From Megamerina dolium (lineage: Eukaryota > Arthropoda > Insecta > Diptera > Megamerinidae): DNA of 64,000 bases. The stretch is taken from contig OY978525.1 of the NCBI GenBank assembly GCA_963854835.1, forward strand, positions 45,450,938 to 45,514,937, given 5' to 3'. The notes below the pieces were generated by a model that saw nothing but the letters and a program-made list of their open reading frames with translations, had not been told where the DNA came from and searched no databases. Below, in pieces: positions 3,253-55,079 of the stretch (the stretch's first letter is position 1; each line of letters opens with the position of its first letter). Made by a program: the position numbers and the translations under genes.

Positions 3253-3393
3253 CCTGGTCCAATTCCCGGAATGCGTCCACCTTTGGGAGCTGGATCTTTG
3301 CACCAACCACAAGCAAAGGGAAATAGCATGGGATTCATAATGCCTTTATATACAATAGGAATTATTCTATTCTTTGGATATACTATTGTCAAG
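3253..3393 (+). CDS. RIC3: RIC-3 exon: proline-rich segment and transmembrane helix
   Basis: The exon follows an AG at 3251-3252 and stays open for 47 codons to the GT at 3394. It begins PGPIPGMRPPLGAG, a Pro/Gly-rich linker, and continues GNSMGFIMPLYTIGII followed by LFFGYTIVK. The GxxMPLYTIGIIxFFxYTI block is the most conserved signature of RIC-3 proteins and forms their second hydrophobic segment in the ER membrane. The reading frame is closed upstream by TAG at 3250-3252, which is itself part of the acceptor. The donor GTGATT is weaker than GTAAGT. The phase at the start cannot be known without the previous exon. Confidence 0.85.
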
Positions 3394-3472
3394 GTGATTA
3401 TATTACTATCCACGTAAAAATCTATTAGGAATTATTTGTTTAAAAATTTTGTGAATATTTTAATTTCTACAG

Positions 3473-3599
3473 GTAGCCTTAAGGAAGTCTGTACCAAATG
3501 CTCCGTATGGTTCACTATCATCGGACTCAAGTTTTCGAAATGAAGTGTTTGGGCGTGAAGATGGTCGACATGTCGAGAGTGTCGGCAGATCTCGACTTG
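3473..3599 (+). CDS. RIC3: RIC-3 exon: post-membrane charged segment
   Basis: A pyrimidine-rich tract and CAG end at 3472. The exon reads VALRKSVPNAPYGSLSSDSS followed by FRNEVFGREDGRH and ends in phase 1 at a good donor, GTAAGA (3600). The preceding intron is only 79 bp, a typical short fly intron. The basic residues just after the membrane helix, followed by a polar stretch, match the RIC-3 layout, in which this region faces away from the membrane next to the coiled coil. The next annotated exon joins in phase with or without the microexon at 3677. Confidence 0.82.
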
Positions 3600-3676
3600 G
3601 TAAGATAATATCAAAATCATATTATTTGATTGCAGCTTTTAACATTAATAAAATTTGCATTATTTGTGCAATACAG

Positions 3677-3697
3677 GGTGGGATGAGCATCAAACAA
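3677..3697 (+). CDS. RIC3: RIC-3 microexon of 21 nt (probable cassette)
   Basis: Twenty-one bases lie between a consensus acceptor (AATACAG, ending 3676) and a consensus donor (GTAAGATT, from 3698). Using the one-base overhang of the previous exon it adds GWDEHQT and leaves a one-base overhang again, so it can be included or skipped without changing frame. It is too short for ORF-based detection. Drosophila ric-3 is reported to be alternatively spliced, which makes a cassette microexon plausible here. That it is used is inference. Confidence 0.6.
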
Positions 3698-4074
3698 GTA
3701 AGATTCCATTTATAAAAGCTGAATTGATTTTTTCAGTCATTTTAAAATATGTCCTACTTTTGAATAAAGATACTTACGATTTTTAAATTTCACGATCTTT
3801 CGATCAATACAGCTTGGTATATTTACTATTTGAGGTAGAATAACTCGAAGTTTCGTTATTCGGGACGTAATACACATAATAAGCAGCATAGAAAGTATGA
3901 AAATTAAAATAGAACATTTTGTCTAAAAGAATTACATATCTATTTCACAAGCTGTCGTAAGCTGCTGTATCGTTGTATAGTTTTATGCATGGTGTAATAA
4001 AACTAAGGCGGTATCATCGGAAGGATGTTTGTTGCAATTTCGACAATTTCTGCATTCGTACTAGAAGTGACGTT
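3698..4074. other. Start of the 31-kb intron; nothing recognised
   Basis: AT-rich intron sequence after the microexon donor. No open frame or repeat family is recognised before the RTE tail at 4075. Confidence 0.55.
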
Positions 4075-4076
4075 CT

Positions 4077-6362
4077 TCTTCTTCTTCTTATGTGGCCATA
4101 ACAACCGATGATCGATTTAGGCCGAACATATAATGCGGCGCCATTCTTCTCTGTTCTTCGCTTGCTGACGCCAATTAAATATTCCAAGCGCCCCCAGGTT
4201 ACCCAAAACTTGGTCCTTCGAACGGAGGTTTGTTCTTCCTCTTCTTCTGCGTCCTCCAGCGGGTGCCAATTTAAATACCCTTCTCGTTGGAGCGTTTTCT
4301 TCCATTCGCTCGACATGATCCAGTCAGCGCAGTCGCTGGATTTTGATCCGCCTCACCATGTCAATGTCAGCGTATAGCTCATACAGCTCATCCTGTGCAT
4401 AACTTTTCTTTCCTTTCATCCGTGGTAGAAATAGTCCAGGCTTCTGGCCCATATGTTAGGACAGGAATAATGAGGGGCTTGTAGAGTGTGATTTTCAATC
4501 TTCGAGAGGATTCGACTACTCAGTTGCTTACTCAGCCCAAAGTAACACCAGTTAGCAAGAGTTATTCTACGCATGATCTCCAGGTTGACGTAATTACAGT
4601 TGGTGATGCTGGCTCCAAGATAGACAAAGTCCTTCACCACCTCGAAAGTGTAATTGTAAACAGTCACGCGTTGTCCAAGACGCCGGGACTCTGTTCCTAG
4701 ACACTAGGTACTAGGCCCTCGTTTACCGTAAGCCCTATTCGACGTGACTCTCGTTCCAATTCAGAGAATGCTGCACTGACTGCTCGCAAGCAATATCGTC
4801 GGCAACTTTTATCTTCAACTTTTGTTGAAGATAGTGCCCTTATGTCGTAAATCTGCAGCTCGTATAATTTTCTCCATATTAAGGTTCAACAAGTCACACG
4901 ATAACGAATCACCTTGCCTGAAACCTCGTTCGGTATTAAATGGAGGGGAGAGGTCCTTCCCAATTTTCACTCCACAACGAGAGTTACGCAGTGTCGTTCT
5001 GCAAAGTCGAATGAGTTTTGCATGTATACCAAATTCAGGCATGGTTGTGTGGAGGTAATACCTTATCGTACTGTCGAAAGCGGCTTTATATGATGAATAG
5101 GTGATGTGTGCCGATCTGTTTTTCTTGGGTCTTTTCCAGGATTTGGGGTAGTGTGAAAATTTGATCGATGGTGGCTTTATTCGGTCTGAATCCACACTGA
5201 TAAGGTCCAATCAGATTGCTGAGCATAGGCTTCAATCTTTCACACAATACGCACGATAAGACCTTGTATGTTATGCTCAGGAGACTTATGCCACGGTAGT
5301 TGGTGCAAATTTCTTATATACGGAGCAGAGAACACTGACACTCCAATCATCGGGCAGATTCCCATTTCCGCCACGACAGTAAGGCTCCGGGATTTAAAAC
5401 GCCACTCAGACGCTTGATTTTCTCAAAGAATTTTCGAGTCTTATTCCTGTTTCTATACATCTCGATCTCCTTACACTCGAGTTTTTCTAGCTCTCTTTAC
5501 ATACTCCTGAAAATACTTCCTCTTCTCTCTATACCGCTCCTTAACAGCTCGCGTGGCACCTACACGCGAGCGGTAGCGTTGTGACACTCCTGATCATACC
5601 ACTTATTCCTCAGAGGCCGGTAACAGCAGTAGTTATGGAGTGGGATATGTGTGTCCACTATGCGCATGTATCATTAAGAGGAGTTTTTTGCATAAGCAGA
5701 TCCGATAATCGAGTGGTAAATGTGTTTGCTGTCTCTGGCGATTGCAGCTTATTGATGTCAAGCTTTCTCTGTGTGGGACTTCGTTTGTTCTTTGCGACAT
5801 ATAAACGTGTTCGTACTTTAGCACCTTAGTGATCCGAGTCGATGTTGGCACCACGGACCGATTTCACATCCATCACGTGATCAATTTGGTTTCTCGTTCG
5901 CTGATCAGGAGACAATCATGTCGTTTTGTGGATATCGAGATGCTGGAATCTGGTACTACTAATTACCATGTTTTGTGCTGCGGCGAAGTCGATCAGCCTC
6001 ATTCCGATATCAGAAGTCTTTTGGTGGAGGCTGAATTTTCCGACAGTAGGTACCCTCCATACCTACCCTGGCATTGAAATCGCCAAGCACGATTTTAATG
6101 TCGTGGGGAGTGTTGAGGGCTGCGGTCATAAGTTTTTTCGACGCGCTGAAAGCTCTCTTTGGTCGCATCGTCTTTCTCATCCGTCGGAGCGTGGGCACTG
6201 ATTAGACTGATGTTAAAAAATTTGTCTCTGATGCGCATTGTGGCCAGCCGTTCGTTCACAGGCGTGAAATGTGAGACCAGGTGTCGGAGTCTCTTGCTGA
6301 CCAAAAATGCACATCCTAGTTCGTGCCTCTCCACATGGCAACTATAGTAGATGACACAGGAT
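4077..6362 (-). pseudogene. RTE-type LINE, old 5'-truncated copy with (GAA)n tail
   Basis: Read on the minus strand this runs from endonuclease remnants (about 6334-6010, with IKIVLGDFNARVG) through RT (5210-4815, including GFRQGDSLSCDLLNL) to the C-terminal region (4667-4117, with ENAPTRRVFKLAPAGGRRRR). It ends in ATAAGAAGAAG repeats at 4091-4075. The element encodes an AP-like endonuclease and RT that together nick DNA and copy the element RNA. Compared with the near full-length copy at 47930-51305 it is shorter, shows many frameshifts and stops, and has clearly lower identity, so it is an older insertion. The 5' end is lost near 6362. The tail type differs from the (TAAG)n of the other internal copies. 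Confidence 0.82.
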
Positions 6363-6394
6363 ATGTCACACAGATGTCATAGTTATTATACATA

Positions 6395-6612
6395 AAATAA
6401 AAATAAATATGTAGCACTTAAAGCCCTGAAGGTCTCATTGGCCTAGCTTCTCTTCCATTACTGTTGTGCGTGTTAAATTTTAGACAGTATTAGAAGGGAC
6501 CTATTTATTTTAGCCGGTTCCGAATGGCAGAACCCTTGTGACATAACTTTTTCTGAGCTTTGTCACAGAGTTCTTTTAGAAGCTTTTTCATGGCCAGTTG
6601 TAAATAGATTTG
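6395..6612 (-). repeat. tRNA-derived SINE, head missing
   Basis: Starts aaataaatatgtagcactta, then cttctcttccattactgttg, agccggttccgaatggcaga and ctttgtcacagagttctttt. The same blocks occur in the same order at 53945-54170 and, reversed, at 39960-40115. Minus orientation; the tRNA-like head is absent. Confidence 0.75.
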
Positions 6613-7255
6613 ATTAAATAAATTATTGCTGTATGTAGTTGTACAAAATAAGTGTTAAACATATTTCCGTTTTTAATACATAGTTATTTTTTTAGCTTTA
6701 ATATGGCAACACTCCATATTTTGAAGTTCAATGGAAAAGAAATTGAACTAAATTGGGAAATATTTTTTGTAAAGTCGCCAAAGAATTTTCGATTTTATTT
6801 TTTAAAGTAAAAGAGTTTTGAATCTAGCTTGATCCGCCTTACTTTTTAAAATTAAATATTAAATTACGAAACGAGTATATTTAGGTATTTGTATATGCAT
6901 ATGAATAAAATAATTTCCATTTATTTTTATTAGTGAAAAGGAAAACAAATAATAGTAACTCGTGAGAAAGGCGAAATAAATGAAAAATTTACTTACCAAC
7001 AATATGTAAAAACTATACCAAATATGTGTATCAGAGGAAAATTCATTTGATTCTTCTTCTTTTCCTTATTATCGTCATACAATAATATCAGTAGGTGTAT
7101 ACACACATACACATGCTCGTGTAGTCGATCGCTATAACGACAGAGAAAGAAGAAACAATCAAATGAAATTTCACTGAACGTAAAATGTAGCGTTATAGGA
7201 ATTTTACATTGTATATTAATTCTTGCTTTATACATAGATATGTACTAAAGGTGCA
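6613..7255. other. AT-rich intron sequence, nothing recognised
   Basis: Short open frames only, for example 7235-6993 minus, with biased composition and no recognisable motif. Confidence 0.5.
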
Positions 7256-7621
7256 TGACTTGCCAACGTAAGGCATGAAAAACCAATCGACGCTTGATCA
7301 ACTAATGTTGCGATTAGTCAATACGTATACGTAGGTAACGGATCAGCTGTTCCGATCTATATCATACAAAAGCCATAAGAGCGATTAGTCAAAACGGATT
7401 GGTAGGTCACGTAACGTTGAAATCTGTAGATTTTAGATTTTCAACGGAGTTAATGTCAAAAATGAGACTTGATGGAATTCAATGTAGGGATTATTCATTC
7501 TCTTTTCTCTCATTTATATTTGTATTCTGTATTATATCTAGTCATCTCTTTCCTACTCGTTGTATTTCTAATGATCATTTATTATCAGATCTTTGAACTC
7601 GTTAGACGTCAAAATAACAAG

Positions 7622-8185
7622 ATGGGCGATGAAAAATTTATTAATTTAGTACAAAGCAACGAAATAATTTATAATAAATACAATGTATTTTACAAATTTC
7701 CCGAAAAAAAGAGCAGTGTGGAGGAGTATTGACAAAGAAATGGGGATGACAGGTATGTATAGCAAAACTATTTTACAATTTATACACGTTTATTGTGTAG
7801 ATGAATTGTGTATAAGAAGATGGATCACTTTTAGGGACAGATATGTGAGGGAGTATATATATGTAGGTATATATATTTTAATATAGAAAAACGTATTTGT
7901 AGTGTACGATGCACAACTAATATATTATCCAGCAACGAGCTAGCAGGTTGTGGTCCTCAAATCTTTCTGGATATTTCGCCAATACCATCACCTCTTCTAT
8001 CGCCATCTCCAGCACCACCTACACCATCAGCACCACCACCAACATCATAGGCCGCTGCGAGTAAAAGAAAGAGAGTGAATTTAGAGGCTATAGAAGCATT
8101 CACGAAAGTTTGTGCGGCACGAGTAGCCAATATCAGCGCTCAGCATGATGAAGTTGTGAAGAGCAATACAACCCAGAACTATTGA
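7622..8185 (+). pseudogene. MADF-domain protein of the Harbinger element
   Basis: The frame opens at ATG 7622 with MGDEKFINLVQSNEIIYNKY and NVFYKFPEKK, the start of a MADF domain (a Myb/SANT-like DNA-binding fold). A frameshift near 7715 moves it to VWRSIDKEMGM, the expected next helix. After a gap that may be an intron (GTATGT at 7752), 7930-8185 encodes a Pro/Ser-rich stretch with one stop and then AAASKRKRVNLEAIEAFTK followed by VCAARVANISAQ. Accessory proteins of PIF/Harbinger elements have this N-terminal DNA-binding plus C-terminal helical layout. Broken by at least one frameshift and one stop. Confidence 0.55.
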
Positions 8186-8493
8186 CTCGTAATTTTCGGA
8201 AGTGCATTCAATAGTGCTACGCAGTACTCGCCAACAAGTAGTCAAGATACCAAAACTATTTTCAATGACTACGTGCTCGAGAAATCCTATAATTAAATAT
8301 TCGCTTTATTCTTGTAAGTTTAGTACCAGGATTTGGTCGCATGATGTTTGTCCTCAATGGAAACGCAGCATCTCCAACGAAAAAATGTGGAAAGTGTTCG
8401 GGTGATTGCGTGGACAACGGAACGCTGCATTTGCGTGTTACTGAGTATAGCTTGCTTAAAAGGCGAGCTCTTAAAAATACCTTTTAATAAAAT

Positions 8494-9235
8494 TCAGGTT
8501 ACTATGATACATATGTATTTGAAGAAATTATATTTGAACATACCTCCATAGCTCTGGCTACCGAAGCTTCCAACGCTTATCGACGTAAAGGTATATTTTG
8601 CGTCGCACGTAGCCATCAAAACAATGCTGTAAAATTTCTTATAATTATAGTACATTGTTCCAGATTCTGCCGGACACTTTATGCTGATGTGCTTTCCATC
8701 TATTGCACCTACACAACATGGAATATTCCACACTTGCATGAAGTCAGCAGCAATGTCCTTATATTGGACTTCTGATGGATGGCTGACGTAAATTGAGGAA
8801 AGTGCACACCACAATGCCTCACAAGTTCCGAGAATTATATTACGAATCGAAGTTTTCCCCAATTTGTGACTTCATACAATGCTTTGCACAGATGCTCCAT
8901 GCGCCATGCATCTTAAAATAAGAACACACATTATTGACTATAAAACGTAATTTCACTTCTTACTTACAATAGTATAGCAAGGCGTTCCTCTGGGCCAATT
9001 CTTTGTCTGGACTTCCGCAATGAATTTCCCACATGACGCAATAGCAATTCAAATAGAGGACGCGACATCCAGTATGTACGTAGAACTGTTGTCAATCCAA
9101 TTTCTTTATTTGTTTTTTTAAACTTTGAAAAGGTATCCATTGTTCGACCAATCGGAATTAATTGGACTAACTCGCCATCTTTTCTGTTGCGTCTATTTCC
9201 ACATCACTTACTTCCATTTTAAATGTTTATGGTTT
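8494..9235 (-). pseudogene. HARBI1-like DDE transposase, broken
   Basis: 8862-8494 encodes 122 aa with GKTSIRNIILGTCEALWCAL, then CVGAIDGKHISIKCP, NYKKFYSIVLMATCDAKY and SVGSFGSQSYGGMF. The first catalytic aspartate is in the VGAIDGKH motif and the second is expected in the ATCDAKY region. The N-terminal part continues out of frame at about 9235-9000 (MSRPLFELLLRHVGN then GPEERLAIL). The C-terminal third with the catalytic glutamate is missing, as the frame ends at 8494 and plausible coding sequence is not seen beyond. Family known function: cut-and-paste transposition into 3-bp targets. Defective here. Confidence 0.78.
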
Positions 9236-9887
9236 TTATTTGTATTATTAAGATACATTTCTTGTGAATAGCACGACACAATGCACGTCTGTATATGTAC
9301 ACTTATATTCTACGTATATAAGATACAACACAACAGAATAAAATTATTTGTTTTGACGTGTTGACTAATCGCACTACGGTTTCTATGTTACCTTACTTTA
9401 CTTTCCCTTACCTTATTGCATTGATTTTCTCCGCTACGAGCAACGTCTACGTCACCGTCATACGGTGGTGAGTTTTCGTTTACACGACATTCCCATAAGA
9501 TAAGTGGTGTCAGCTGACACGTTCTACGTTTTTACGTCGGTCGCTAGTTGCAGCATAATACAAATCATCAGTGCCTGTCATGAAAAGCAACAACAATTAT
9601 AACGTACAACATACTCGTAGTACTCTCAAATATTCGTATATTTGAAGAGAAAAAACGGATGTATGGAATATTTCTTGCACAAGAAATGAGTGGGGTATTC
9701 TATTTGCCTGATATTTTACTCGCAGTCATTCTCATTCTATTTAGATATGCTTTGCAAATATTGTACATGTTTTGAGACTAAAGAGAATCATTCGAAAACC
9801 AAATACATTTTCGCAGCTCTTTAATACAGAATAGCTCTTAAGTTAAGTGCCCATAACGATAACAATAATTGCTGTTGAACAGTTATA

Positions 9888-10411
9888 ACCTAGACAGACG
9901 GCAGCCTAATTCCGGATTACCGGCGCACTTAATCCGAATAAAATAATAACCTGACAGACGGCAGTATTGCGGATTAACTAAACGGCTGATTGATGTTTTA
10001 TTAGGTCTGTCCACTTACATTACTATCACTATCAATTTCTGTCATCTATCACTCTCGATATGAGAAAATCTACAAGAAGTACGTGAACTGGAAACTATCA
10101 GAAACTTGTAAATTGGTATTCACCGTTCGTAATTGACAGCTGGATTTATTTGGTCGCCAACACTTTTCATGTTGAAAACTGTTAACAATTGTTGAAAGTA
10201 TTTTGTTTTCGAACACACCTAATATTTTGTAAAATGGATGGAGAAAAATTCACAATAGATAATTTTCAGCAGTGTTGCCATAGCAAATTTCCCTAAACCT
10301 CTTTTATTTTGAGAATTAACTCATAAAGTTTATGCGGATTAGCTGCAGTTAATTCCCGAGTTAATTCGAATTAACTCGGTAATCCGGAATTAGGCTGCCG
10401 TCTGTCTAGGC
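9888..10411. mobile_element. 524-bp MITE, copy 1, TA-flanked
   Basis: Left end acctagacagacggcagcct matches the inverted right end at 10377-10411 (rc gcctagacagacggcagcct). TA dinucleotides at 9886-9887 and 10412-10413 are the likely target duplication. A second, shortened copy of the terminal motif (cctgacagacggcag) lies 60 bp inside the left end. The copy at 40754-41277 has the same length and opposite orientation. No coding capacity. Confidence 0.85.
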
Positions 10412-10607
10412 TATTACTGTCCCGAGCTAATCAAATTAATTAATTTTGAAGTAAAACTTCAAAATTTAAGAATTTAAAAATAAAATATGTGGTAGCACAA
10501 AAAACATGTTATAAACTACCTACGTATGTATTTATAATATAAATACATATATTTTGAAATTTCAGAAGGATGCAGATTAAAACTTTCGAATACTTGCTTA
10601 TAGTTAT

Positions 10608-10621
10608 ATATTGGGTTACTT
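10608..10621. repeat. Target-site duplication of the RTE insertion (left copy)
   Basis: atattgggttactt occurs here and again at 11903-11916, immediately bounding the RTE copy. Confidence 0.85.
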
Positions 10622-11902
10622 ACTTACTTATGTGGCCATAACAACCGAATATCGATTTAGGCCGAAAATAACATGCTTCGCCAGCCATCTCTGTTCTTCG
10701 CTAGCTGGCGCCAGTTAGAAATTCCAAGCGCCGTCAGGTTCTCCAGTACTTGGTCTTTCCACCGGAGGTTTGGTCTTCCTCTTTTGCGTCGTCCTCCAGC
10801 GGGTTCCGAATATAACACCTTCTTAGCTGGAGCGTGTTCTTCCATTCGCTCGACATGCCAGCGCAGCCGCTGGATTTTGATGCGCTTTACTATGTCAATA
10901 TCGGCATACAGCTCGTACAGCTCATGGTTGTACCTTATTCGGTACTCGCCACCAACGCAAATAGGTCCAAAGATCTTGCGTAGGACTTTTCTCTCGAAAA
11001 CTCCAAGTATTCGCTCATCCGAGGTGGAAATTGTCCAGGCTTCAGCGCCATATGTTAGGACAGGCATGATGAGAGACTTGTAGAGTGTAGTTTTCGTTCT
11101 ACGAGAGAGGGCTCGACTTCTCAATTGCTTACTCAGCCCAAAGTAACACCTGTTAGCAAGAGTTATCCTACGCATGATCTCCAAGCTGACGTCATTACTG
11201 CTGTTAATGCTGGTTCCAAGATAGACAAAGTCCCTTACTACTTCAAAAGCGTAGTTGTCAACAGTGACGTGCTGTCCAAGACGCCGGGACTCTTTGTTTG
11301 TTGACACTAGATACTTCGTCTTGCCCTCGTTCACCGTGAGACCCATCCGACGCGACTCTTTTTCCAACTCTGAGAATGCTGCACTGACTGCTGTCAGTAA
11401 CAGCTAACAGCATGACACTTTTGTTGAAGATAGTGCCATTATGTCGTAGATCAGCAGCTCGTATTATTTTCTCCATAATAAGATTGAAGAAGTCGCACGA
11501 TAACGAATCACCTTGTCTGAAACCCCGTTCGGTATTAAACGGTGCGGAGAGGTCCTTCCCAATTTTCACTGCACAACGGGAGCTATGCAGTGTCATTCTA
11601 CAAAGTCGAATGAGCTTTGCAGGAATACCGAACTCAGACATTGTTGCGTAGAGGTAATCCCTTACCGGACTGTCGAAAGCGGCTTTATAATCAACAAATA
11701 GGTGGTGTGTGTCGATCTGTTTTTCTTGGGTCTTCTCCAGGATTTGGCGCAGTGTGAAAATCTGGTCGATTTACCAGGTCTGAAGCCACACTGATAAGGT
11801 CCAATCAGGTTGCTGAGCATAGGCTTTAACCTTTCACACAGTACGCTCGATAGAACCTTGTACGCGATGCTCAGGAGACTTATTCCACGGTAGTTGGCGC
11901 AA
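10622..11902 (-). pseudogene. RTE-type LINE, 5'-truncated copy with target duplication
   Basis: Minus-strand 3' half of the RTE also present at 47930-51305. 11641-11258 carries MSEFGIPAKLIRLCRMTL and ERGFRQGDSLSCDFFNLIME. 11367-10657 carries the C-terminal region ending WRQLAKNRDGWRSMLFSA. The tail is (TAAG)n at 10633-10622. A deletion of about 34 bp near 11397 removes the YADD catalytic box seen in the sister copies, so this RT would be dead. It shares a 7-nt frameshifting deletion (near 11770) and a 6-nt deletion (near 10855) with the copy at 47930-51305, so the two have a common source. Truncation falls at ttggcgcaa (11894-11902). Confidence 0.9.
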
Positions 11903-11916
11903 ATATTGGGTTACTT

Positions 11917-12385
11917 GCCTCAATTAAATATACCAATTTTTACACGTCAATATCCATTGCACGATTATATGTCTTTGAAAAACAATGGGACAGAAATAGG
12001 CAACGGCATGTGTTTTCTGTCTTGTCTTGTTTTTTTCGTTTAGCTTCGTTAGATGTGGGTTGCACCGTAAGAAAGCATGTATTCGTCGACAACGGCGACA
12101 GTTTGAGATAAACTTGTTCCATTTGGTGCGTGTTGGCTGTCAATAAATGTATAGTTCGACAACTACTCTTCAGACACGTCGAGACATACGTTTTAAAATT
12201 GATGGTGACGTGATTCCAGTTCTTGCCAATCTTATGACTCACTAACGTGCCGTTTACAGATTTTTCCCAATAACTGAAAATAGTGCAAAAAACAGGTTTT
12301 CCGCAAATGTGTCGAAAATGCCTCTATAGTAACATAAATGAGTACCATTTTCTTTTTCGGACCAAACATAGTTTAGAAAATATAT
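11917..12385. other. No recognised gene
   Basis: Sequence between the RTE target duplication and the gypsy LTR. A 100-codon minus-strand frame at 12242-11940 has no motif I recognise and could be chance. Confidence 0.45.
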
Positions 12386-12789
12386 TGTTACGATTTTATT
12401 TTGTGAACGCTTAATTCTATTTGAATCAACCTTGTTCGATCACTGAATTCTGTCAATAATGATTGCAACACTTATTTTGTACAAATATATAGAGCAATAA
12501 TTTATTTAATCAACTCTATTTATAATCAGCTATTTACAATAATTCTTTAATGGACTTGCAACTTTTGCATCTGATACTATATCAATGTTTGCGCGTTCAC
12601 TCTCAGGATTCAATTTATTTCATTTGTAAACAACTGGCCCTATTTATACTCTGTGGCAACACTCCAGAATCTTCCTCTATCGTAGTTGAGATTCTTCTCT
12701 TTCTTTCTCATTCGCTTGTTCTGGTTATCGCCTATTTCTTTTTGATGACATTCGTTGTGATGTGTAACCAACCAGCGATATTCGTAACA
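12386..12789 (-). repeat. Gypsy 3' LTR (404 bp)
   Basis: Begins tgttacgattttattttgtg and ends ttcgtaaca, so it has TG...CA ends. The internal phrases gaatcaaccttgttcgatca and ctatttatactctgtggcaa recur in the LTRs at 25977, 32242, 43319 and 53395, defining one LTR family. Confidence 0.8.
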
Positions 12790-13860: not shown

Positions 13861-13934
13861 GGTTTTTAAATTGTCATAACCACCTTAGCGTTGTGTGGTC
13901 AGTTCGTAGATGAAATGACTGACCGTACAAGTAT

Positions 13935-45578: not shown

Positions 45579-45611
45579 CTAATACTGGGCCGAAAAAAGG
45601 CCCAGTATTAG
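45579..45611. repeat. Perfect 13-bp hairpin at a deletion joint
   Basis: ctaatactgggcc (45579-45591), loop gaaaaaa, ggcccagtattag (45599-45611). In the sister gypsy (14045-14125) the flanking text is collinear without the hairpin and about 60 bp longer. Confidence 0.92.
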
Positions 45612-46390
45612 CGGTTTGGTTTGTTCTCTCTTGTTAGCTCGTGCAGACTGCTGGCGATGTTTTCAAATCGAAGAACAAATCGCCTATAGTAGGTGCACAA
45701 GCCTAGGAAGCTTCTTAACTCGTGAAGATTTACCGGAATATGCCATCCTTGTACTGCTGCTACTTTCTCCTCGTCGGTATGTACCACTACTGTTGTTACT
45801 TTATGACCAATATATTTAACTTCTCATCTGACAAGTGGACACTTCTTCGGCTTTAGTTTAAACCCTGCTGGTTGTTTACGCGCGAATACTTCTTACAACT
45901 CTTCCAGGTGGTCGTTAAAATCTTTTCCCATAACGATAATGTCGTCGAGCTACACAAAGCACGTTTTTCAGTGTAGTCCTCTGAGTACACGCTTCATCAA
46001 ACGTTCGAAGCTTGCCGGTGCATTGCTAAGTCAAATGGCATCGGTGTAAATTGCCATAGACCATCACCTATACTGAAAGCTATTTTCTCTTTGTCCTCCT
46101 CACCAAGTTCCACTTACCAGTACCACTTTGCAGATCAAGAGTTGAAAACCACTTCGCACCAGATAGCGTGTCCAGAGTGTCATCGATTCTTGGCAGTGGA
46201 TAGTTGTTTTTTTCGTGATATCGTGGTTCTTGATACATTGGTCTAGAATCACCGGTGTCAATGTGATGTTTCGCGATGGTTGTTCGTCTAGCAGTTTTTC
46301 CATTTGATGAAAAGATTGAACTATACTTCTCCAATAGGTGTAAGCCTTTTTCAAAATCTGTTTGGTAAACACATCTGCCTATTCTTACAT
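45612..46390 (-). pseudogene. Gypsy reverse transcriptase, decayed
   Basis: 46334-46080: KHHIDTGDSRPMYQEPRYHE, then NYPLPRIDDTLDTLSGAKWF and STLDLQSG, the first RT blocks including the catalytic Asp of FSTLDL. Further down (46079-45790) are traces of the block with the second catalytic pair (atcgttatgggaaaagattt on minus) and of LRRFCTYYRRF-type thumb text. At least one internal deletion and several frameshifts. Confidence 0.75.
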
Positions 46391-46617
46391 CTGTGCTTTT
46401 AATTCCGCTCTAACAGTTCCCGATCTTCCACTCTTCACCGACGAACCCTTTTCGCAGTCTATTACGGCAGTAACTTCCTGGCAATAATCACCATTCCTTT
46501 CTTCACAACTGTAGATGTATTCGTTAGCTTTAATATTCGCACCGGTACCATTCCATTTTCTTTAGTTCGACTAGCGGCCCACAAAGTTTTTATTTGTTAT
46601 TTCTTTGTCCGCTTCCA

Positions 46618-47012
46618 CTATCCACAACTTGCCTGTCCCATCATCCATGATTTTGCTGGAACCTCTTGGCATTGACATGCCAGTATCCGTTTTATGTTTC
46701 CACTACGCTTATAACCGATGTTCAATGGTATCACGATATTTGCATAGCGTAGTATCCGTTGATTTAAATCTAACGTAAACCTATTGTCAATCATAAAAAC
46801 AACACCAATTATTACGTCATCGATGATGTCGGCCACAATGAATTCATGTTCCACGTGTAATTTCTAGTCGATTTGCGTTTCTTTATGTTGCCCAGAATTT
46901 GTGCATCCTCACCCGTTGCTGTACGCAATTTTATTCCCATTAAAGGCTCAAACCTCTTTACCAAATCGCTCTTGATTATAGAATGTGATGCACTAGTATC
47001 CAGGGTTAACAT
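46618..47012 (-). pseudogene. Gypsy protease
   Basis: 47012-46812 begins MLTLDTSASHSIIKSDLVKR; the retropepsin active-site triplet D-T/S-G is altered to DTS. 46854-46618 continues as EHEFIVADIIDDVIIGVVFM and RFTLDLNQRILRY. The two parts are one frame apart. Upstream sequence is cut by the LINE at about 47025. Confidence 0.78.
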
Positions 47013-47029
47013 GAACTATGTACTGTTCC

Positions 47030-47929
47030 TTTTACAAACAGAGTAAAGTTGAACCTTGGTATAATAACTGTTAAAGGAACCAATATAAGTTATTCCGACG
47101 AAGTCAAATACCTAGATTTACTGAATATATACAATGATGGTTAGACTGTACTGACTAACTCTTGTATGGTGGGCAAAAACCACACAAGAACTACTTACAA
47201 ACTTTCAAAAGGGAAGCTTGTTTGGCAATCACGGGGGCAATGCGTAACTGCCCTACCACTGCTATCGAAGCAACAATAGGATTATCTCTCTTACATATCT
47301 GTATAAAAAAATATGCTGCTAGAAGAGCATTGAAGATACAAATCTTGTCTTGACAGGAAGTCTTTGACTTTGGTCATATGAGTATTTGAAAAAACATACA
47401 TCATCAAAAGATTATCTGTTCATTAACAGACTTAATGATTACGAAACGACAATTTGATCGTAAATTTATGATTATCATCTCAGACCGTGATGAATGGGAC
47501 TTAGGAGGACCTTGAGTCGATCCTAGAAGTCTGAAGTGGTTCACAGATGGGTCAAAAACAGACTCGGTCGGTGTGGGATTCTACGGACCCAACACCAAAA
47601 TTTCAGAACCAATGAGCAGATGGCCTATCTTCTTTCAGGCTGAGATTCAAGCAATTTAAATCTGCGCAATGATAAATCTGAAAAGAGGCATCAAGGGTGC
47701 ACATATTACTACCATTCACATAGACAAGCTGCATTGCAAGCACTAGATTCATATTCTATGGAATCGAAACTAGTCGAAGAATGCTTCAACAACCTGCAAT
47801 CTCTAGATACAATGAATAAGATTGCACTTGCTTGGGTTCCTGGTCATTCAGGGATCGAAGGTAATGAAATTGCTGATGAATTAGCCAGGGTTGGTTCATC
47901 AGCAAACCTCATAGGCCCAGAGCCATACT
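47030..47929 (+). pseudogene. LINE RT thumb and RNase H
   Basis: Thumb: YSDEVKYLDL, then WWAKTTQ-like text and CLAITGAMRNCPTTAIEATI (47216-47275). RNase H: WFTDGSKTDSVGVGFYGPN (first catalytic Asp), FFQAEIQAI (catalytic Glu), a damaged third site, and 47734-47925 IALAWVPGHSGIEGNEIADE, which holds the last catalytic residues. RNase H removes the RNA template strand during target-primed synthesis; LINEs of the R1/LOA/I groups carry it. Several frameshifts and stops, for example TAA at 47659. Confidence 0.78.
47914..47929. repeat. 16-bp target duplication of the RTE (left copy)
   Basis: ggcccagagccatact here and at 51306-51321. Confidence 0.93.
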
Positions 47930-47965
47930 TACTTACTTATGTGGCCATAACAACCGAATATCGAT

Positions 47966-49893
47966 TTAGGCCGAAAATAACATGCTTCGCCAGCCATCTC
48001 TGTTCTTCGCTAGCTGGCGCCAGTTAGAAATTCCAAGCGCCGTCAGGTTCTCCAGTACTTGGTCTTTCCACCGGAGGTTTGGTCTTCCTCTTTTGCGTCG
48101 TCCTCCAGCGGGTTCCGAATATAACACCTTCTTAGCTGGAGCGTGTTCTTCCATTCGCTCGACATGCCAGCGCAGCCGCTGGATTTTGATGCGCTTTACT
48201 ATGTCAATATCGGCATACAGCTCGTACAGCTCATGGTTGTACCTTATTCGGTACTCGCCACCAACGCAAATAGGTCCAAAGATCTTGCGTAGGACTTTTC
48301 TCTCGAAAACTCCAAGTATTCGCTCATCCGAGGTGGAAATTGTCCAGGCTTCAGCGCCATATGTTAGAACAGGCATGATGAGAGACTTGTAGAGTGTAGT
48401 TTTCGTTCTTCGAGAGAGGGCTCGACTTCTCAATTGCTTACTCAGCCCAAAGTAACACCTGTTAGCAAGAGTTATCCTACGCATGATCTCCAAGCTGACG
48501 TCATTACTGCTGTTAATGCTGGTTCCAAGATAGACAAAGTCCCTTACTACTTCAAAAGCGTAGTTGTCAACAGTGACGTGCTGTCCAAGACGCCGGGACT
48601 CTTTGTTTGTTGACACTAGATACTTCGTCTTGCCCTCGTTCACCGTGAGACCCATCCGACGCGACTCTTTTTCCAACTCTGAGAATGCTGCACTGACTGC
48701 TCGCGTGTTCATGCCGATTATGTCAATATCGTCGGCATACGCTAACAGCATGACACTTTTGTTGAAGATAGTGCCATTATGTCGTAGATCAGCAGCTCGT
48801 ATTATTTTCTCCATAATAAGATTGAAGAAGTCGCACGATAACGAATCACCTTGTCTGAAACACCGTTCGGTATTAAACGGTGCGGAGAGGTCCTTCCCAA
48901 TTTTCACTGCACAACGGGAGCTATGCAGTGTCATTCTACAAAGTCGAATGAGCTTTGCAGGAATACCGAACTCAGACATTGTTGCGTAGAGGTAATCCCT
49001 TACCGGACTGTCGAAAGCGGCTTTATAATCAACAAATAGGTGGTGTGTGTCGATCTGTTTTTCTTGGGTCTTCTCCAGGATTTGGCGTAGTGTGAAAATC
49101 TGGTCGATTTACCAGGTCTGAAGCCACACTGATAAGGTCCAATCAGATTGCTGAGAATAGGCTTCAACCTTTCACACAGTACGCTCGATAAAACCTTGTA
49201 TGCGATGCTCAGGAGACTTATTCCACGGTAGTTGGCGCAAATCGTGGGGTCTCCTTTTTTATGTACAGGACAGAGAACACTGAGCCTCCAATCATCAGGC
49301 ATGCTTTCATCCGACCATATTCTGCTTATGAGCTGGTGCATGCGGGTGAGCAGCCCATCGCCTCCGGTCTTAAACAACTCGGCAGGCAGGCCATCAGCAC
49401 CTGCAGCTTTGTTGTTCTTCAGCCTTAAAATGGCCGTTTCAACCTCGTCATAGTCGGGTGGTGGAACATCAACACCATCATCTGTAATTGGGGTTATCGG
49501 GCAATCTCCTCCACTGGCGGAATTGTTCGTAGCATCGCCATTCAGTAACGTGGAGAAGTGTTCCCTCCATAGGCTCAGTACACTCTGGACATCTGTAACC
49601 AGATTCCCATTTCCATCACGACAAGAAGAGGCTCCGGGATTTAAACCTCCACTCAGGCGCTTGATATTTTCGAGGAATTTTCGAGTCTCATTCTTGTCAG
49701 TACACATCTCTATCTCCTCACACTCGCGTCTTTCCAACTCCCTCTTCTTGCGCCTGAAAAGACGTGTCTCTGCACTCCTTTTCTCTCTGTACCGCTCCTT
49801 AACTCGGTCGCATTGCGCCTGCTCGCAGGGTTTTTCTGTAGGCGGCGTCTTTCTCTGTGGTAGCGTCGCGACACTCCTGATCATACCACTCAT
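47966..49893 (-). pseudogene. RTE reverse transcriptase, one frameshift
   Basis: 49893-49000: a basic linker, RLKNNKAAGADGLPAELFKT, LCPVHKKGDPTICANYRGIS, LIGPYQCGFRPGKST, then the frame is lost to a 7-nt deletion near 49108 relative to the 4077-6362 copy. 48979-47966 (337 aa): MSEFGIPAKLIRLCRMTL, RQGDSLSCDFFNLIME, VMLLAYADDIDIIGMN (catalytic YADD), thumb, and the C-terminal region with RLRWHVERMEEHAPAKK and GGRRKRGRPNLRWKDQVLEN. Apart from this frameshift the domain looks sound. The 7-nt and a 6-nt deletion are shared with the copy at 10622-11902. Confidence 0.9.
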
Positions 49894-50126
49894 TCCTCAG
49901 AGGCCGGTAGTAACCGATTACCTCCTCGGCAGCATTAGTCATGGAGTGGGATATATGTGTCCACCGTGCGCATGTATCATCAAGTGGGGGAGTGTTCTGC
50001 ATAAGCAGATCCAATAGTCGAGTGGAAAATGCATCTGCTGTCTCTGGTGATCGCAGCTTACTGACGTCGAGCTTTCTCTGTGTGGGACTTCTCTTGTTAT
50101 TTGCGACACATAGGCGTGTGCGCACC

Positions 50127-50921
50127 TTAGCTGCAACAAGGTAGTGAGTGATCCGAGTCGATGTTGGCACCACGGATCGATTTCCCGTCCATCACACTGG
50201 AAGCATGCCTTCCGTCAATCACCACATGATCATTTTGGTTTCTTGTACGTTGATCTGGAGACAGCCATGTCGCTTTGTGGATGTCGAGATGCTGGAATCT
50301 GGTACCACCAATTACCATGTTTCGTGCTGCGGCGAAGTCAATCAGCCTCATTCCGTTATCGGAGGTGTTCTGATGGAGGCTGAATTTTCCGACAGTTGGA
50401 CCAAAGGTACCTTCCTTGCCCACCCTGGCATTAAAGTCGCCAAGCACGATTTTGATATCGTGGCGGGGGCAGCGGTCATAAACTTCTTCGAGGCGCTGAA
50501 AGAAGCTCTCCTTGGTCACATTGTCCTTCTCATCCGTCGGAGCCTGGGCACATATAAGCCTGATGTTGAAAAATTTTGCCTTGATGCGGATTGTGGCCAG
50601 CCGTTCGTTCACAGGCGTGAACTGTGAGACAAGATGTCGTAGTCTCTTGCTGACCAAAAATGCACATCCTAATTCGTGCCTTTCAGCATGGCAACTGTAG
50701 TAGATGTCACAGGACGCTCCTTTGGAGCAGCCCTGTCCTGTCCATCGCATTTCCTGGAGAACGGTGATGTCAGCTCTGTATTTTTCGAGGACATCAACCA
50801 GCTGGATAGAGGCACCCTCCCTATAAAGGGACCGGACATTCCAGGTGCATATCCGTAAATCATTGTCCTTTTTTCGTTTGCGGGGGTCATCAACAAAAGT
50901 GGTAGTCCTTATCCGAGGCAT
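50127..50921 (-). CDS. RTE endonuclease domain (APE type)
   Basis: 264 codons from ATG at 50921. Motifs: LRICTWNVRSL (metal-binding Asn), DITVLQEMRWTGQG (Glu), the SCDIYYSCHAERHELGCAFL region, HDIKIVLGDFNARVGKEG (Asp/Asn of the active site), ATWLSPDQRTRNQNDHVVID and the final SDH in NIDSDHSL. These are the conserved positions of apurinic-like endonucleases that nick the chromosomal target. Proteins of this kind are often labelled craniofacial development protein 2-like in insect annotations. The frame is intact through the whole domain and then shifts in the linker (50173-49799). Confidence 0.88.
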   Translation of the reverse strand: MPRIRTTTFVDDPRKRKKDNDLRICTWNVRSLYREGASIQLVDVLEKYRADITVLQEMRWTGQGCSKGASCDIYYSCHAERHELGCAFLVSKRLRHLVSQFTPVNERLATIRIKAKFFNIRLICAQAPTDEKDNVTKESFFQRLEEVYDRCPRHDIKIVLGDFNARVGKEGTFGPTVGKFSLHQNTSDNGMRLIDFAAARNMVIGGTRFQHLDIHKATWLSPDQRTRNQNDHVVIDGRHASSVMDGKSIRGANIDSDHSLPCCS

Positions 50922-51321
50922 AGTTTTTTTTCATTGGAGGGGTATTTTATGTGGCGGGTCCCAAACCCAACGCACAACCTCTAACCGAGGAGATTTTCGC
51001 CACTCACTTCAGCCGCCTCCCAGCGGGTGCCAGGAAGACGTTGCCCGTTGGTCGCCACATGGAGGGCCCCCATTAATAATAATAATGAAAGCGCCGTCAC
51101 ATAGTAAGCAGAGCAAGCTATATGACTACCCCTCATTAACAAATAAAGGTATCATCACATAGCGCTCAGATCAAACTACATGACAGCCAGTGAGTTGACT
51201 TGCGATGAGTTCAACAAGGATTGCGCTAGCCCCACCCGGTTGAGGCAGTTAGACACGTTACCTTGCGAAAACACCACCAGACCACCCACCACCACCAGAC
51301 AGTATGGCCCAGAGCCATACT

Positions 51322-51741
51322 GTGTTATAAACTGGGCGGAGGCTAAATGAAAAATAAATAACTGGGAACATAACCTTAGGGTATCACACTGGAAAGAAAT
51401 ACAACAACTTCGCCAAACCAAACGATTGGTAAGGTATTTTACCTACAACAAGGAACTGCGCAATATGTGCAAAGTAGATATTAGGAAAATAGTACGTTTT
51501 CTTTCAGGTCACTACTACCTGAAATACCATCCCACCGAATTACACATACACTTTGGACATGGAGTACCGGCTCTGCCTAGAAGAGGATGAAACCACAGAA
51601 CAGTTATTGTGTAACTGTATTGCGTTGGCAAAAACAAGGGTGAACATATTTCATCGTGATTATTTGGACCCGTTAGTAATAAAAAATGCCTCTCCTTGGG
51701 ACATTCTAAACTTCATCCGCAAGGCGGAAAAGATACTGTAA
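51322..51741 (+). pseudogene. LINE C-terminal region after RNase H
   Basis: Reads INNWEHNLRVSHWKEIQQLR, VDIRKIVRFLSGHYYLKYH and, after a frameshift near 51545, YRLCLEEDETTEQLLCNCIA with ASPWDILNFIRKAEKIL. The C-x-x-(E)5-T-x-x-H/Q-LLCxC block is the zinc-like knuckle found at the end of such LINEs. Resumes where 47929 stops. Confidence 0.75.
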
Positions 51742-52069
51742 GGACATGGGTGTCAGTTACTTCCTTTCTTTAGACTAGGAACATTTTGGTAGATAAGGAC
51801 CTGATGACATAAATTACAACTAAACCGATAGGGCATAGTAGATAGTACAATTGTGATCAAGTGGATGACAATAATTTAAATGTATTGTGACACAAAAGCT
51901 TTATTATTTCGCAGTGTCGGCAACCTACTACAGTAAATTATTATTACTATTTTTTTATCCAGTTTACCATCAATAGTCAAGCTGCTTGACACACACTGTA
52001 GTTGTGAAATGTGAATGATGGGGTAACCCACTGTTGGAGTCAGATCACGCCCCGCTGAACTGACTCAAT

Positions 52070-52950
52070 TTAGTTTAACGATTGTTTTGGGTTAGTGGAG
52101 CGATCGCTGTTCACCTTATTCTCTTTCTTTTGTCCTCCTGGAGAATTCGATCTTGATAGCTTTCGTCGCAGCCGGCAATCACGCGCCATTTGTCCTGGTT
52201 TGTCGCAAATGAAACACTTACCAGTAAATTTGTTTTCGCGTCGACCTGTTGTTCTTGCTTCAGGCTGCACTACTAACTTGAATGCCTGACGCACTGGTTG
52301 GTTGACGAGTTGGTGTACTCGTGCCATTGGTCGACACATCAAACTAGCGGTTTAATTCGCCAAAGCGCTACTGACTGTTTTGGCATATGTACTCCTGGGT
52401 GATATGACCAGTGCACACTTAGTCTCTCCGCCGCGTATACAATCTATGAAAGCCTAAATTTTTACTTTTTCGATGAATTCTTCCAAATTACCAGAGAAAG
52501 CAAGATGATATAAGCGCTCAATGTCGCAAGCGAAATCCTCTCATTACTCCGATGCACTCGCGATCATAATTCCACTCGATGCAATTAACTCTTATATTCA
52601 TATTCATATTTTCGCTGGAGTATGTCCATCAGTGATTGACAGCTATCACGATCTTTCTCTGGAACCACCTTTAACACTTCGGAAGCATTACCTTGTAATG
52701 CCACTATTAAGGCAGCAGTCTTGTCGCTATCATCCCATTGATTCTTCGAAGCTGTTGTCTCGAATTGAAGCTTAAAGATATTGAATGGCGTGCTTCCGTC
52801 AAATGCTGATGGTTTTAGTTTGATTGTTCTTGAATCTCTAATCACTGATGTGGCTGGTCCATTTATTTCTAGTTGATTGAGTTCGTGCTGTAATTTCTCG
52901 AACTTATCTTCCCAGTCGTCGACATGTTCCTTCAGCTTATCATCCAACTC
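52070..52950 (-). pseudogene. Gypsy gag
   Basis: 52947-52585 (120 aa): the coiled-coil start DKLKEHVDDWEDKFEKLQHE, then LKPSAFDGSTPFNIFKLQFE and AALIVALQGNASEVLKVVP, the capsid region of gypsy gags. 52342-52070: nucleocapsid with the zinc knuckle CFICDKPGQMARDC, where the histidine of CX2CX4HX4C is replaced by Gln. Further 5' coiled-coil text reaches about 53260. Gag forms the particle. The lost His and internal stops indicate a dead copy. Confidence 0.82.
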
Positions 52951-53394
52951 ATCTACGTGTCCTTTCAGCTCTGTGATTTTGTCATTAATAGCTCCGGAAA
53001 TTTCCTAAAATCTGAGTTCAATTCCTTTTTGTAGATTTTCGATGACGTGTTCTTGGCGAGCCGAACCTTCTTGAATTTCCACTAATAATGCCCTCTTGGA
53101 GTGCCGAATGTTGTTTGGAATTCCCGATAACTTTTTCATGGCGAGCAGAATGTTCTTGAAAATGTAAGTCAATGCGAGACGCATTTTCTTGTAGCTGTTG
53201 TTACTGCTGTTGCGTCATGGTTTTCATAAATTCCATGAGTTGACCATTCCTCAAAGAACTCATGTTCTTCTACATTAATACTCTTAGCTTGCCTTAGCCT
53301 CACCAGCAGTTCCGCTTTTACACCTGATGACGATAGTCCCCTTTTTGTTGGTATATTTTCACTATCTTAACAGAATCTCATTTCTGGCACCAAT

Positions 53395-53510
53395 TGTTAC
53401 GTTTTTATTTTGTGAACTTTTAATTCTATTTGAATCAACCTTATTCGATCACTGGATTCTGTCAATAATAATTGCAACACTTATTTTGTAGCTACAATTA
53501 TTTAATCAAC
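53395..53510 (-). repeat. Gypsy 5' LTR, truncated
   Basis: tgttacgtttttattttgtg and gaatcaaccttattcgatca match the inner end of the family LTR; homology stops at about 53510. Confidence 0.8.
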
Positions 53511-53639
53511 TTTTTTTCTGATACAAATCAAAATGCAATTTCTCACTATTTGAAGCAAAACAACAGCAGAAAAAAATAATAATAATACAATAATACTCTA
53601 GTCACAGCTACAATAGATAGTGTCAAATATGACAACTAA

Positions 53640-53940
53640 TGTGCGTTTACATGTGTGGCACTTATAGGCCACGAAAAACCGTTTTAGCCGAGGATCTCCT
53701 TCAGTACTGTTGTGTGTGCTAAATTTGAACAGTATTAGACTGCACGTCATACTTACATTAGCCGGTTCCGAACAGCAGATCCCTTGCGGCATCACTTTTT
53801 TGAGCTTTGTAGCCGAGCACTTTTAGAAGCTTGTTATTGCCGGAAAAATGCAAATTGCTTACCAACAGGTGGGTACCGTTCTAAAGAAAATTTTTTCGGT
53901 ATTAAAGTTGCGCTTCAACCGGGGATTGAACCCACGACAT
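53640..53940 (-). repeat. tRNA-derived SINE, diverged full copy
   Basis: Tail tgtggcacttataggccacg, body agccggttccgaacagcaga and head rc ggttgaagcgcaac / tgggttcaatccccggttga (B box at about 53917-53935). Minus orientation. Confidence 0.75.
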
Positions 53941-53944
53941 AAAA

Positions 53945-54235
53945 TAAGATGAAAAATAAATATGTGGCACTTAAAGTCCCAAAGAACTCTTTGGCCGAGC
54001 TTCTCTTCCATTACTGTTGTGTGTGTTAAAGTTTGGGCGGTATTAGAAGGGACCTACTTATTTTAGCCGGTTCCAAACGACAGAAACTTTTTGCGTCATC
54101 ACTTTTTCTGAGCTTTGTCACAGAGTTCTTTTAGAAGAAGCTTTTCCATGGCAAATTTTTACTGCCGGAAGAATTGCCAATCACATCAGAAAATCAACGC
54201 ACTAACCACTGAGCTACAGCGTTCTTTAGACTTAA
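53945..54235 (-). repeat. tRNA-derived SINE with deletion in the head
   Basis: Tail atatgtggcacttaaagtcc to head rc cgctgtagctcagtggttag (A box, about 54200-54220). About 60 bp containing the B box and neighbouring body are deleted (joint near 54183). Confidence 0.78.
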
Positions 54236-54331
54236 TATATAAACATATCTTAAATGTTATGACATTAAATCGTACAGTTCCAAGAATTGAACTTTTCATA
54301 CATAATTACTTACATACACATATTTACATTA

Positions 54332-54684
54332 AGGTGCTTCGCCAAAAAAAGTTCAGTTTTTACCAGAGAAGCATGAAATTTGGCTTACTTTATGACGTCC
54401 ACCAAAATATTTCAGCTCAACAGAAACTCGCAGGCTGTTTCGTTTTGAAAAATGTTAATTTTTTGAGTTTTTCTGAGATTTTTTAAAAACAAACTCTTTC
54501 TATTATATCAGCTCATTCATTGGAAAAATGAAAGCAGTTTTTCATTAAAGATTCGATTCTTAGAGGATTTATATTGAATCAAAATATTTTCGTGCACATC
54601 ATAAAGTAAACCAAATTTCATGTTTCACTGGAGAAAGCGGCATCTTATTATTATTTTCTTTAGTGTATGGAGGGTGAGGCACCT
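54332..54684. mobile_element. 353-bp hairpin MITE next to a RIC-3 splice acceptor
   Basis: The ends aggtgcttcgcc and (inverted) aggtgcctcacc are flanked by TA at 54330-54331 and 54685-54686. Inverted similarity runs about 110 bp inward from each end (agcatgaaatttggcttact against rc acatgaaatttggtttactt; tttatgacgtccaccaaaat against rc tttatgatgtgcacgaaaat). No coding capacity. It ends 48 bp before the exon at 54733. Confidence 0.82.
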
Positions 54685-54732
54685 TATTATGCATCTATCG
54701 ACAATTAGTCATAAAAAACATATATATTTCAG

Positions 54733-54885
54733 TCCAAATACCCTGCAGATGATGTTTTAAAACCAGAATTCATATACTTAGAAGGTGCTTTGGCTCATGA
54801 CTCCCAAATCTTGGTAACCGATTCAGAAACAAAAACTGAGACACTTTGTAAAAAGGGACTCAATGGATCATTAGAAGAACCAACG
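54733..54885 (+). CDS. RIC3: RIC-3 exon: acidic tail
   Basis: Acceptor atatatttcag ending 54732. Reads SKYPADDVLKPEFIYLEGAL, AHDSQILVTDSETKTETLCK and KGLNGSLEEPT, 51 codons, phase 0 on both sides; donor ACG/GTATAT at 54886. The EFIYLEGAL...SQ-LVTDSE block is coding-like and unrelated to the surrounding elements; I associate a similar block with fly RIC-3 tails from memory only. The exon lies right after the 15-kb element-filled intron. Confidence 0.75.
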
Positions 54886-54953
54886 GTATATTATTAATCA
54901 TATTCATACTTAATAAAAATAAATAATTTTTAATTATTATTTATATTTTATAG

Positions 54954-55079
54954 GTTATACTAAGCAGTAAAATGACTTTGTCGCTTATAAGTTTAGATGG
55001 TAATGAACAAAATGATAGCGAGAGTAACAAAGCTAAAAAGGATACTTCATCAACTGTTAAAATCGAAAACCTTGGTTAA
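54954..55079 (+). CDS. RIC3: RIC-3 terminal coding exon
   Basis: Acceptor ttttatag ending 54953 after a 68-bp intron. Reads VILSSKMTLSLISLDGNEQN, DSESNKAKKDTSSTVKIENL and G, then TAA at 55077-55079. Phase 0, consistent with the previous exon. The V-I/V-L-S-x-K/R-M-T-L-S-x-I-S-L-D stretch looks like a short conserved C-terminal motif; the rest is polar and probably disordered. Confidence 0.75.
   Translation, partial: VILSSKMTLSLISLDGNEQNDSESNKAKKDTSSTVKIENLG

What the first reader, a model, noticed from the sequence alone, without database searches (positions are those of the whole stretch)
3253..55079. A RIC-3 gene threaded through 52 kb of transposons
Seen: nine + strand exons with splice signals, compatible phases (except one joint) and a stop plus AATAAA. 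Known: GxxMPLYTIGII-FF-YTI followed by a coiled coil is the RIC-3 signature (nicotinic receptor chaperone). Inference: this is the only host gene of the window, and automatic annotation that masks repeats or calls ORFs would miss it.
Basis: partly seen in the sequence, partly recalled or inferred. Interest (0 to 1): 0.85.

Follow-up and report, generated by a model that had tools for sequence, protein, structure and literature searches.

The report
Fly RIC-3 receptor-chaperone gene, transposon-filled introns
This is the back part of an ordinary fly gene for RIC-3, a helper protein that assembles acetylcholine receptors, spread over about 80,000 bases by transposons; two of its exons are alternatives to each other, and its tail has changed unusually fast.

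Summary
The nine exons are real and encode RIC-3, the nicotinic-receptor chaperone. The spliced product matches fly RIC-3 proteins end to end (best E 5e-111) and passes the Pfam RIC3 cut-off. The odd phase at one joint is no error: exon 4 (coiled coil) and exon 5 have the same phases and are alternatives. Of 226 listed fly RIC-3 proteins, 102 carry only exon 4, 120 only exon 5, 4 both, 0 neither. The predicted first-TM exon lies 24.6 kb before the window, so ATG to stop is 79.6 kb. One conserved exon between the two transmembrane segments was not found; two 5-kb stretches there read N. The visible 500-Mb genome shows one RIC-3 locus plus a partial copy of exons 5-7 418 kb upstream. Unusual and unexplained: the tail (exons 7-9) lost the GRPPTPV and SPLADD motifs, while TM2 and the coiled coil stay conserved. 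Open frames and intact splice sites argue against a pseudogene. It is an ordinary orthologue with transposon-rich introns; the claim that annotation would miss it is unsupported, as relatives are annotated with many isoforms.

The parts
3253..3393 (+). exon e1: PGPIPGMRPP stretch and second transmembrane segment (GFIMPLYTIGIILFFGYTIVK); phase 0 to 0
   Evidence: 76-86% identity to fly RIC-3 in the rows seen; 0 of 26 fly-invariant columns broken
3473..3599 (+). exon e2: VALRKSVPNAPYGS...; phase 0 to 1
3677..3697 (+). exon e3: 21-base micro-exon (G)WDEHQT, phase 1 to 1, optional in relatives
   Evidence: (GWREHQT in flies)
3698..34780 (+). intron 3, 31,083 bases, 69% of it repeated in a 226-kb sample of the genome or elsewhere in the window
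34781..35058 (+). exon e4: coiled-coil exon (LRKKLEDTEKAMAKLIAEMNSD), phase 1 to 0, alternative to e5
   Evidence: the homologous segment of the Ceratitis protein is a helix (318-356) with block-mean pLDDT 84, 92, 88 over residues 321-350
37600..37685 (+). exon e5: VTAIQGLIDAADEQLKLRE..., phase 1 to 0, alternative to e4
37846..38022 (+). exon e6: poorly conserved linker, phase 0 to 0
39416..39508 (+). exon e7: VLGMELTACWEGG..., phase 0 to 0; GRPPTPV motif of relatives lost
39509..54732 (+). intron 7, 15,224 bases, 70% repeated in the same sample, with a LINE (endonuclease and reverse transcriptase ORFs, minus strand, 47969-50930)
54733..54885 (+). exon e8: IYLEGALAHDSQILVTDSETK..., phase 0 to 0
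54954..55079 (+). exon e9: SSKMTLSLISLD...KIENLG, stop TAA; SPLADD of relatives lost
55299..55304 (+). AATAAA, 220 bases after the stop (a second one at 55331)

Best explanation
It is the single visible RIC-3 gene of a fly (Diptera; family not determined). A first exon (ATG, TM1) 24.6 kb before the window and the nine exons here make a membrane chaperone: two transmembrane helices, then a cytoplasmic part. Splicing puts in either the coiled-coil exon e4 or the short exon e5, never both in frame, so that a full-length form and a form without the coiled coil are made. Shown: exons, phases, splice signals, homology, one locus in the visible genome. Inferred from relatives: the splicing choice in this species, residence in the endoplasmic reticulum and help in assembly of nicotinic receptors. 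The introns were stretched by transposons without touching the exons. The tail exons e7-e9 evolve faster than in other flies, for an unknown reason.
For: Homology: 591 proteins at E <= 1e-3, best 5.3e-111; in the listed rows that cover 100% of the query, identity is 40-51%. Pfam RIC3 51.1 bits against a cut-off of 28.9. Exon-by-exon tblastn in order and on one strand. Of six chains tested, five are open to the final stop (e4 or e5 alone, e3 or e7 skipped); e4+e5 together shifts frame. Relatives: 102 e4 only, 120 e5 only, 4 both, 0 neither of the 226 listed. Upstream exon A with ATG and TM1 at C1:45426371-45426572 and cassette exon B at 45426702-45426797. One PF15361 match in the genome, at e1. 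Neutral decay to 55% identity left at least 3 stops in 200 of 200 simulations, against none observed. Literature: full-length and coiled-coil-less isoforms with different effects on receptors (PMC4850696); 19 isoforms in Drosophila (PMC10671637, passages).
Against: No transcript data. The conserved exon between exons A/B and e1 (LRQERPAHLHPESIYQ..., expected phase 1 to 0) was not found in 200 kb upstream nor in whole-genome searches; without it exons A or B do not join e1 in frame. Two 5-kb stretches there read N, so it may be hidden or lost. The gene breaks 26 of 121 columns invariant in 22 flies, where no fly left out in turn breaks more than 9, and has an end branch of 1.19 against a median of 0.13, which could mean weakened function.
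Confidence: 0.9

Rival explanations
1. A decaying pseudogene or redundant copy of RIC-3 that still looks intact.
For: Fast branch and 26 of 121 invariant columns broken. Two tail motifs lost that nearly all listed relatives keep. One internal exon not found. A targeted RIC-3 mutant is viable in Drosophila (PMC10671637, passages).
Against: No stop or frameshift in 371 codons of the e4 chain, and AG/GT borders at all exons. Neutral drift to 55% identity gave 3 or more stops in 200 of 200 runs for the whole chain; for the e7-e9 tail alone 8 of 200 runs had none, so the tail alone cannot exclude it. e1 keeps all 26 invariant columns. It is the only locus found with e1, e2, e4 and e8.
Confidence: 0.07
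2. A divergent paralogue, with the true RIC-3 orthologue elsewhere in the genome.
For: Long branch. A second copy of e5-e7 exists on the same chromosome.
Against: Genome-wide searches with PF15361, P0001 and P0004 give e1, e2, e4, e8 and first-exon matches at this locus only; the other places are the e5 copy and three weak matches on C3, C5 and C6 at E 0.8, 3.3 and 5.9. The second copy lacks e1-e4, e8 and e9 in the 20 kb fetched around it.
Confidence: 0.02
3. The tail exons e8-e9 belong to another transcript, and RIC-3 ends earlier.
For: A 15-kb intron separates e7 from e8.
Against: e8 is 52-64% identical, in the tblastn rows seen, to the RIC-3 segment that follows e7 in the flies aligned; e9 matches the last RIC-3 segment. 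All these joints are phase 0.
Confidence: 0.01

Closest known systems
RIC-3 of flies (Ceratitis P0004, Rhagoletis P0006, Glossina P0007, Teleopsis P0015, Drosophila melanogaster P0070/P0073 and P0294)
   Same: Order of segments, TM2 and coiled-coil sequence, micro-exon e3, e4/e5 alternatives with the same junctions (GWxEHQT-IVTAIQG; SKL-VVTAIQG), C-terminal IYLEG...MTLSLI segment.
   Different: e7 and e9 far more diverged (median identity 52% and 43%, where other flies of different groups have 77% and 71%). GRPPTPV and SPLADD lost. Internal exon LRQERP... not found.
Mammalian RIC-3 full-length and TM isoforms (PMC4850696)
   Same: Splicing decides whether a coiled coil follows the two transmembrane segments.
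   Different: The mammalian short isoform simply lacks the coiled coil; here e5 takes the place of e4. Not compared by sequence here.

Membership tests
RIC-3 (PF15361) | Pfam RIC3 profile match above curated cut-off | tested here: met
   51.1 bits against 28.9, residues 7-178 of the spliced model
RIC-3 (PF15361) | Two transmembrane segments before the cytoplasmic part | tested here: met
   by homology: TM2 in e1; TM1 exon A at C1:45426371-45426572, outside the window; helices at both places in the Ceratitis model. Membrane insertion itself not tested
RIC-3 (PF15361) | Coiled coil after TM2 | tested here: met
   by homology: e4 is 82% identical to Episyrphus over 38 residues of that part; confident helix in the Ceratitis homologue
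RIC-3 of flies | Luminal exon LRQERPxHLHPxSIYQAMRERGRAIP between TM1 and TM2 | tested here: inconclusive
   no match in the visible sequence; 10 kb of the interval reads N
RIC-3 of flies | Tail motifs GRPPTPV and SPLADDIE | tested here: not met
   a GRPPTP-like motif is in 199 of the 199 listed proteins that have e7, SPLADDIE in 225 of 226; both absent here. They mark fly RIC-3 tails and do not define the family
RIC-3 of flies | e4 and e5 mutually exclusive | tested here: inconclusive
   phases force the choice here and relatives show it; no transcripts of this species
RIC-3 (PF15361) | Aids assembly of nicotinic receptors | not testable with these tools
   needs expression experiments

The most novel reading that the evidence does not exclude
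In this fly lineage the cytoplasmic tail of RIC-3 has been freed from, or re-tuned to, a partner that binds the GRPPTPV and SPLADDIE motifs in nearly all other flies examined, while TM2 and the coiled coil stay under normal constraint. The gene would then be a natural experiment showing which part of RIC-3 does what.
Probability: 0.3. Interest if true: 0.45.

Novelty: new member of a known kind. Interest (0 to 1): 0.27.

Why it matters
RIC-3 controls the making of nicotinic receptors, which are insecticide targets. The locus shows how a multi-exon nerve gene keeps its splicing choices when transposons stretch it to about 80 kb. It also explains a phase mismatch as a conserved alternative-exon pair, so such a mismatch should not be read as an error or a dead gene. 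The diverged tail points to motifs of unknown function that are kept in other flies and could be tested.

Tried and rejected
Rejected: a missed exon between e4 and e5 that would restore the frame (not needed; e4 and e5 are alternatives). A second e7 with GRPPTPV, or another last exon with SPLADDIE, in the window: the tblastn rows seen give only chance and reverse-transcriptase matches such as ADDIDIIG at 19.0 and 48.7 kb (output partly cut), and the genome-wide searches give none. A C-terminus cut by an early stop inside the last motif: I first suspected this. The MAFFT alignment and most tblastn rows for e9 put KIENLG* on DIEIIG, so that only about four residues are missing; one row (P0081) aligns it the other way, with the stop inside the motif, so this is likely but not certain.

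Led nowhere: exact 53-mer of e1 in viral contigs and genome contigs, none (the tool says that the window's own genome may be left out there). Rfam and tRNA scans of the window, none. Naming the host: the nearest named LINE relatives are Zeugodacus and Bactrocera at 66-74% over varying lengths, the nearest of all an unnamed protein at 74%. The tree does not settle the family: p-AU 0.157 with Tephritidae, 0.131 with Drosophilidae, 0.043 with Calyptratae, joined to Teleopsis with support 77/75 only. The structure model of the Ceratitis protein is poor outside its long helices (mean pLDDT 48) and says nothing about the tail, so no fold search was made. A first count of e4 and e5 with a narrow motif put 37 proteins in 'neither'; one search corrected it.

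Full report
Fly RIC-3 proteins match them one after another, on one strand and in order (nine query proteins, output partly cut). With the same nine proteins, one reversed and 20 pair-shuffled windows give no match better than 0.024.

The identity is secure. The spliced model, with X at the doubtful joint, finds 591 proteins at E <= 1e-3; the best 120 were listed, and these carry the RIC3 domain; the best E-value is 5.3e-111. Pfam RIC3 scores 51.1 bits against a cut-off of 28.9.

The joint that did not fit is the most informative detail. e4 (278 bases) and e5 (86 bases) both enter in phase 1 and leave in phase 0. Of six chains tested, five are open to the final stop: e1-2-3-4-6-7-8-9, e1-2-3-5-6-7-8-9, e1-2-5-6-7-8-9, e1-2-4-6-7-8-9 and e1-2-3-4-6-8-9. 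The chain with both e4 and e5 shifts frame. Relatives do the same. Of the 226 RIC-3 proteins listed together (each call lists its best 120, out of 591 and 496 found), 102 carry e4 only, 120 e5 only, 4 both and none neither; the 120 join e5 to e3 (58) or, by a looser motif, to e2 (62). The four with both carry extra residues at the joint that look like read-through in gene prediction (inference). The 226 include several isoforms per species and were picked by likeness to the window, so they are not independent.

What this does, by analogy: Ben-David and others (PMC4850696; abstract and sections 3, 6 and 10 read) report that RIC-3 occurs with and without its coiled coil. In oocytes the full-length form raised alpha7 currents at a high dose, and the short form inhibited them at all doses tried. 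Nineteen isoforms are known in Drosophila, and a targeted mutant is viable (PMC10671637, passages). A review says that fly variants with exon 2, in the luminal part, suppress human alpha7 expression (PMC9318448, passages); exon B below is probably that cassette (inference). The primary Drosophila paper (Lansdell 2008) was not read.

Outside the window: the window is C1:45450938-45514937 of a 500.5-Mb assembly in 8 contigs. Exon A (ATG, MQTRYQPP...LSPKKTAFIVVIIVGCIAILWPRVFHSMMFGG, phase 0 to 1) is at 45426371-45426572, and cassette exon B (GCCDFVLDSENFLNKTLEIGPQLYRRQQNF, 96 bases, phase 1 to 1) at 45426702-45426797. ATG to stop is 79,646 bases. The exon expected between them and e1 was not seen, and 10 of the 24.6 kb read N.

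Copy number: PF15361 matches once. P0001 matches e1, e2, e4, e8 and exon A once each, as does P0004, which also finds exon B and e7; weak matches elsewhere are on C3 (E 0.8), C5 (3.3) and C6 (5.9), not followed. DNA across e5-e6 has two places, itself and C1:45070311-45070781 at 99%. That second place is part of a copy of window 35264-39638, 90-97% identical in its longer pieces, apparently with its own SINE insertion, 418 kb upstream on the same strand. It holds e5 with 0 changes in 28 codons, e6 with 4 amino-acid and 1 silent change, and e7 with 4 and 1. Eight of ten is what no selection predicts (expected fraction 0.753). The chance of eight or more would be 0.17 if dN/dS were 0.5 and 0.008 if it were 0.2, so strong constraint on both copies is unlikely there. 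At two e7 sites the window keeps the residue common in flies (A, G) and the copy does not (G, R), which points to the partial copy as the free one. An assembly duplicate cannot be excluded. The changed stretch in place of GRPPTPV is shared by both, so that loss is older than the duplication.

Rate: against 22 flies, one isoform each, the window breaks 26 of 121 invariant columns, while each fly left out in turn breaks 0 to 9 (of 121-130). By exon it is e1 0/26, e2 2/11, e3 0/1, e4 2/24, e6 2/4, e7 5/13, e8 4/20, e9 11/22. Its end branch is 1.19 against a median of 0.13. Median identity to flies is typical in e1 (82, others 85) and e4 (55, others 60), and low in e7 (52 against 77), e8 (62 against 76) and e9 (43 against 71). 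It is also low in e2 (48 against 69) and e6 (23 against 35), so the change is strongest in the tail but not confined to it. A GRPPTP-like motif is present in 199 of the 199 listed proteins that have e7, and SPLADDIE in 225 of 226; the window has neither. It is not a simple wreck: neutral drift, started from the window's own coding sequence, to 55% identity left stops in 200 of 200 runs for the whole chain, though in 192 of 200 for the tail alone. Whether the host evolves fast as a whole was not tested.

Transposons: 70.1% of the gene span repeats within the window or in a 226-kb sample of the same genome (10 kb of it N); e1-e4, e8 and e9 do not, while e5-e7 do because of the partial copy. Intron 3 holds Pao/BEL, integrase and mariner-type pieces, intron 7 a LINE and other repeats. 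Of 60 ORFs of 120 or more residues, 29 were scanned in Pfam; 15 have a match above cut-off, all of kinds found in transposons (the role of Exo_endo_phos, DUF1759 and DUF5641 there is recalled), and 14 have none.

Noticed in passing
21024-27434 and 27435-33683: Tandem duplication of about 6.3 kb, 97-99% identical, inside intron 3; each unit holds a Pao/BEL fragment with a mariner-type transposase beside or in it.
   Followed up: partly
C1:45068410-45073057 of the window's genome (L031): Partial copy of the e5-e7 region, same strand, 418 kb upstream, apparently with its own SINE insertion.
   Followed up: yes
56195-62571: BEL/Pao-like element (Peptidase_A17, RVT, DUF1759, DUF5641) between 97% identical end repeats 56195-56533 and 62242-62571, about 1.1 kb after the RIC-3 stop.
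   Followed up: partly
34181 and 39829; related pieces at 1224, 6410, 40118, 53684, 53963: tRNA-derived SINE-like repeats with A- and B-box-like motifs; ARAGORN calls no tRNA there.
   Followed up: partly
9877-10414 and 40751-41287: Inverted pair of a short repeat, 92% identical, with CCTAGACAGACGGCAGCC-like ends read by eye: a MITE-like element.
   Followed up: no
35777-36140: 94-base minisatellite, 3.9 copies, in the e4-e5 intron.
   Followed up: no
upstream of the window, positions -17499 to -12500 and -4999 to 0: Two stretches of exactly 5,000 N in the fetched chromosome.
   Followed up: no
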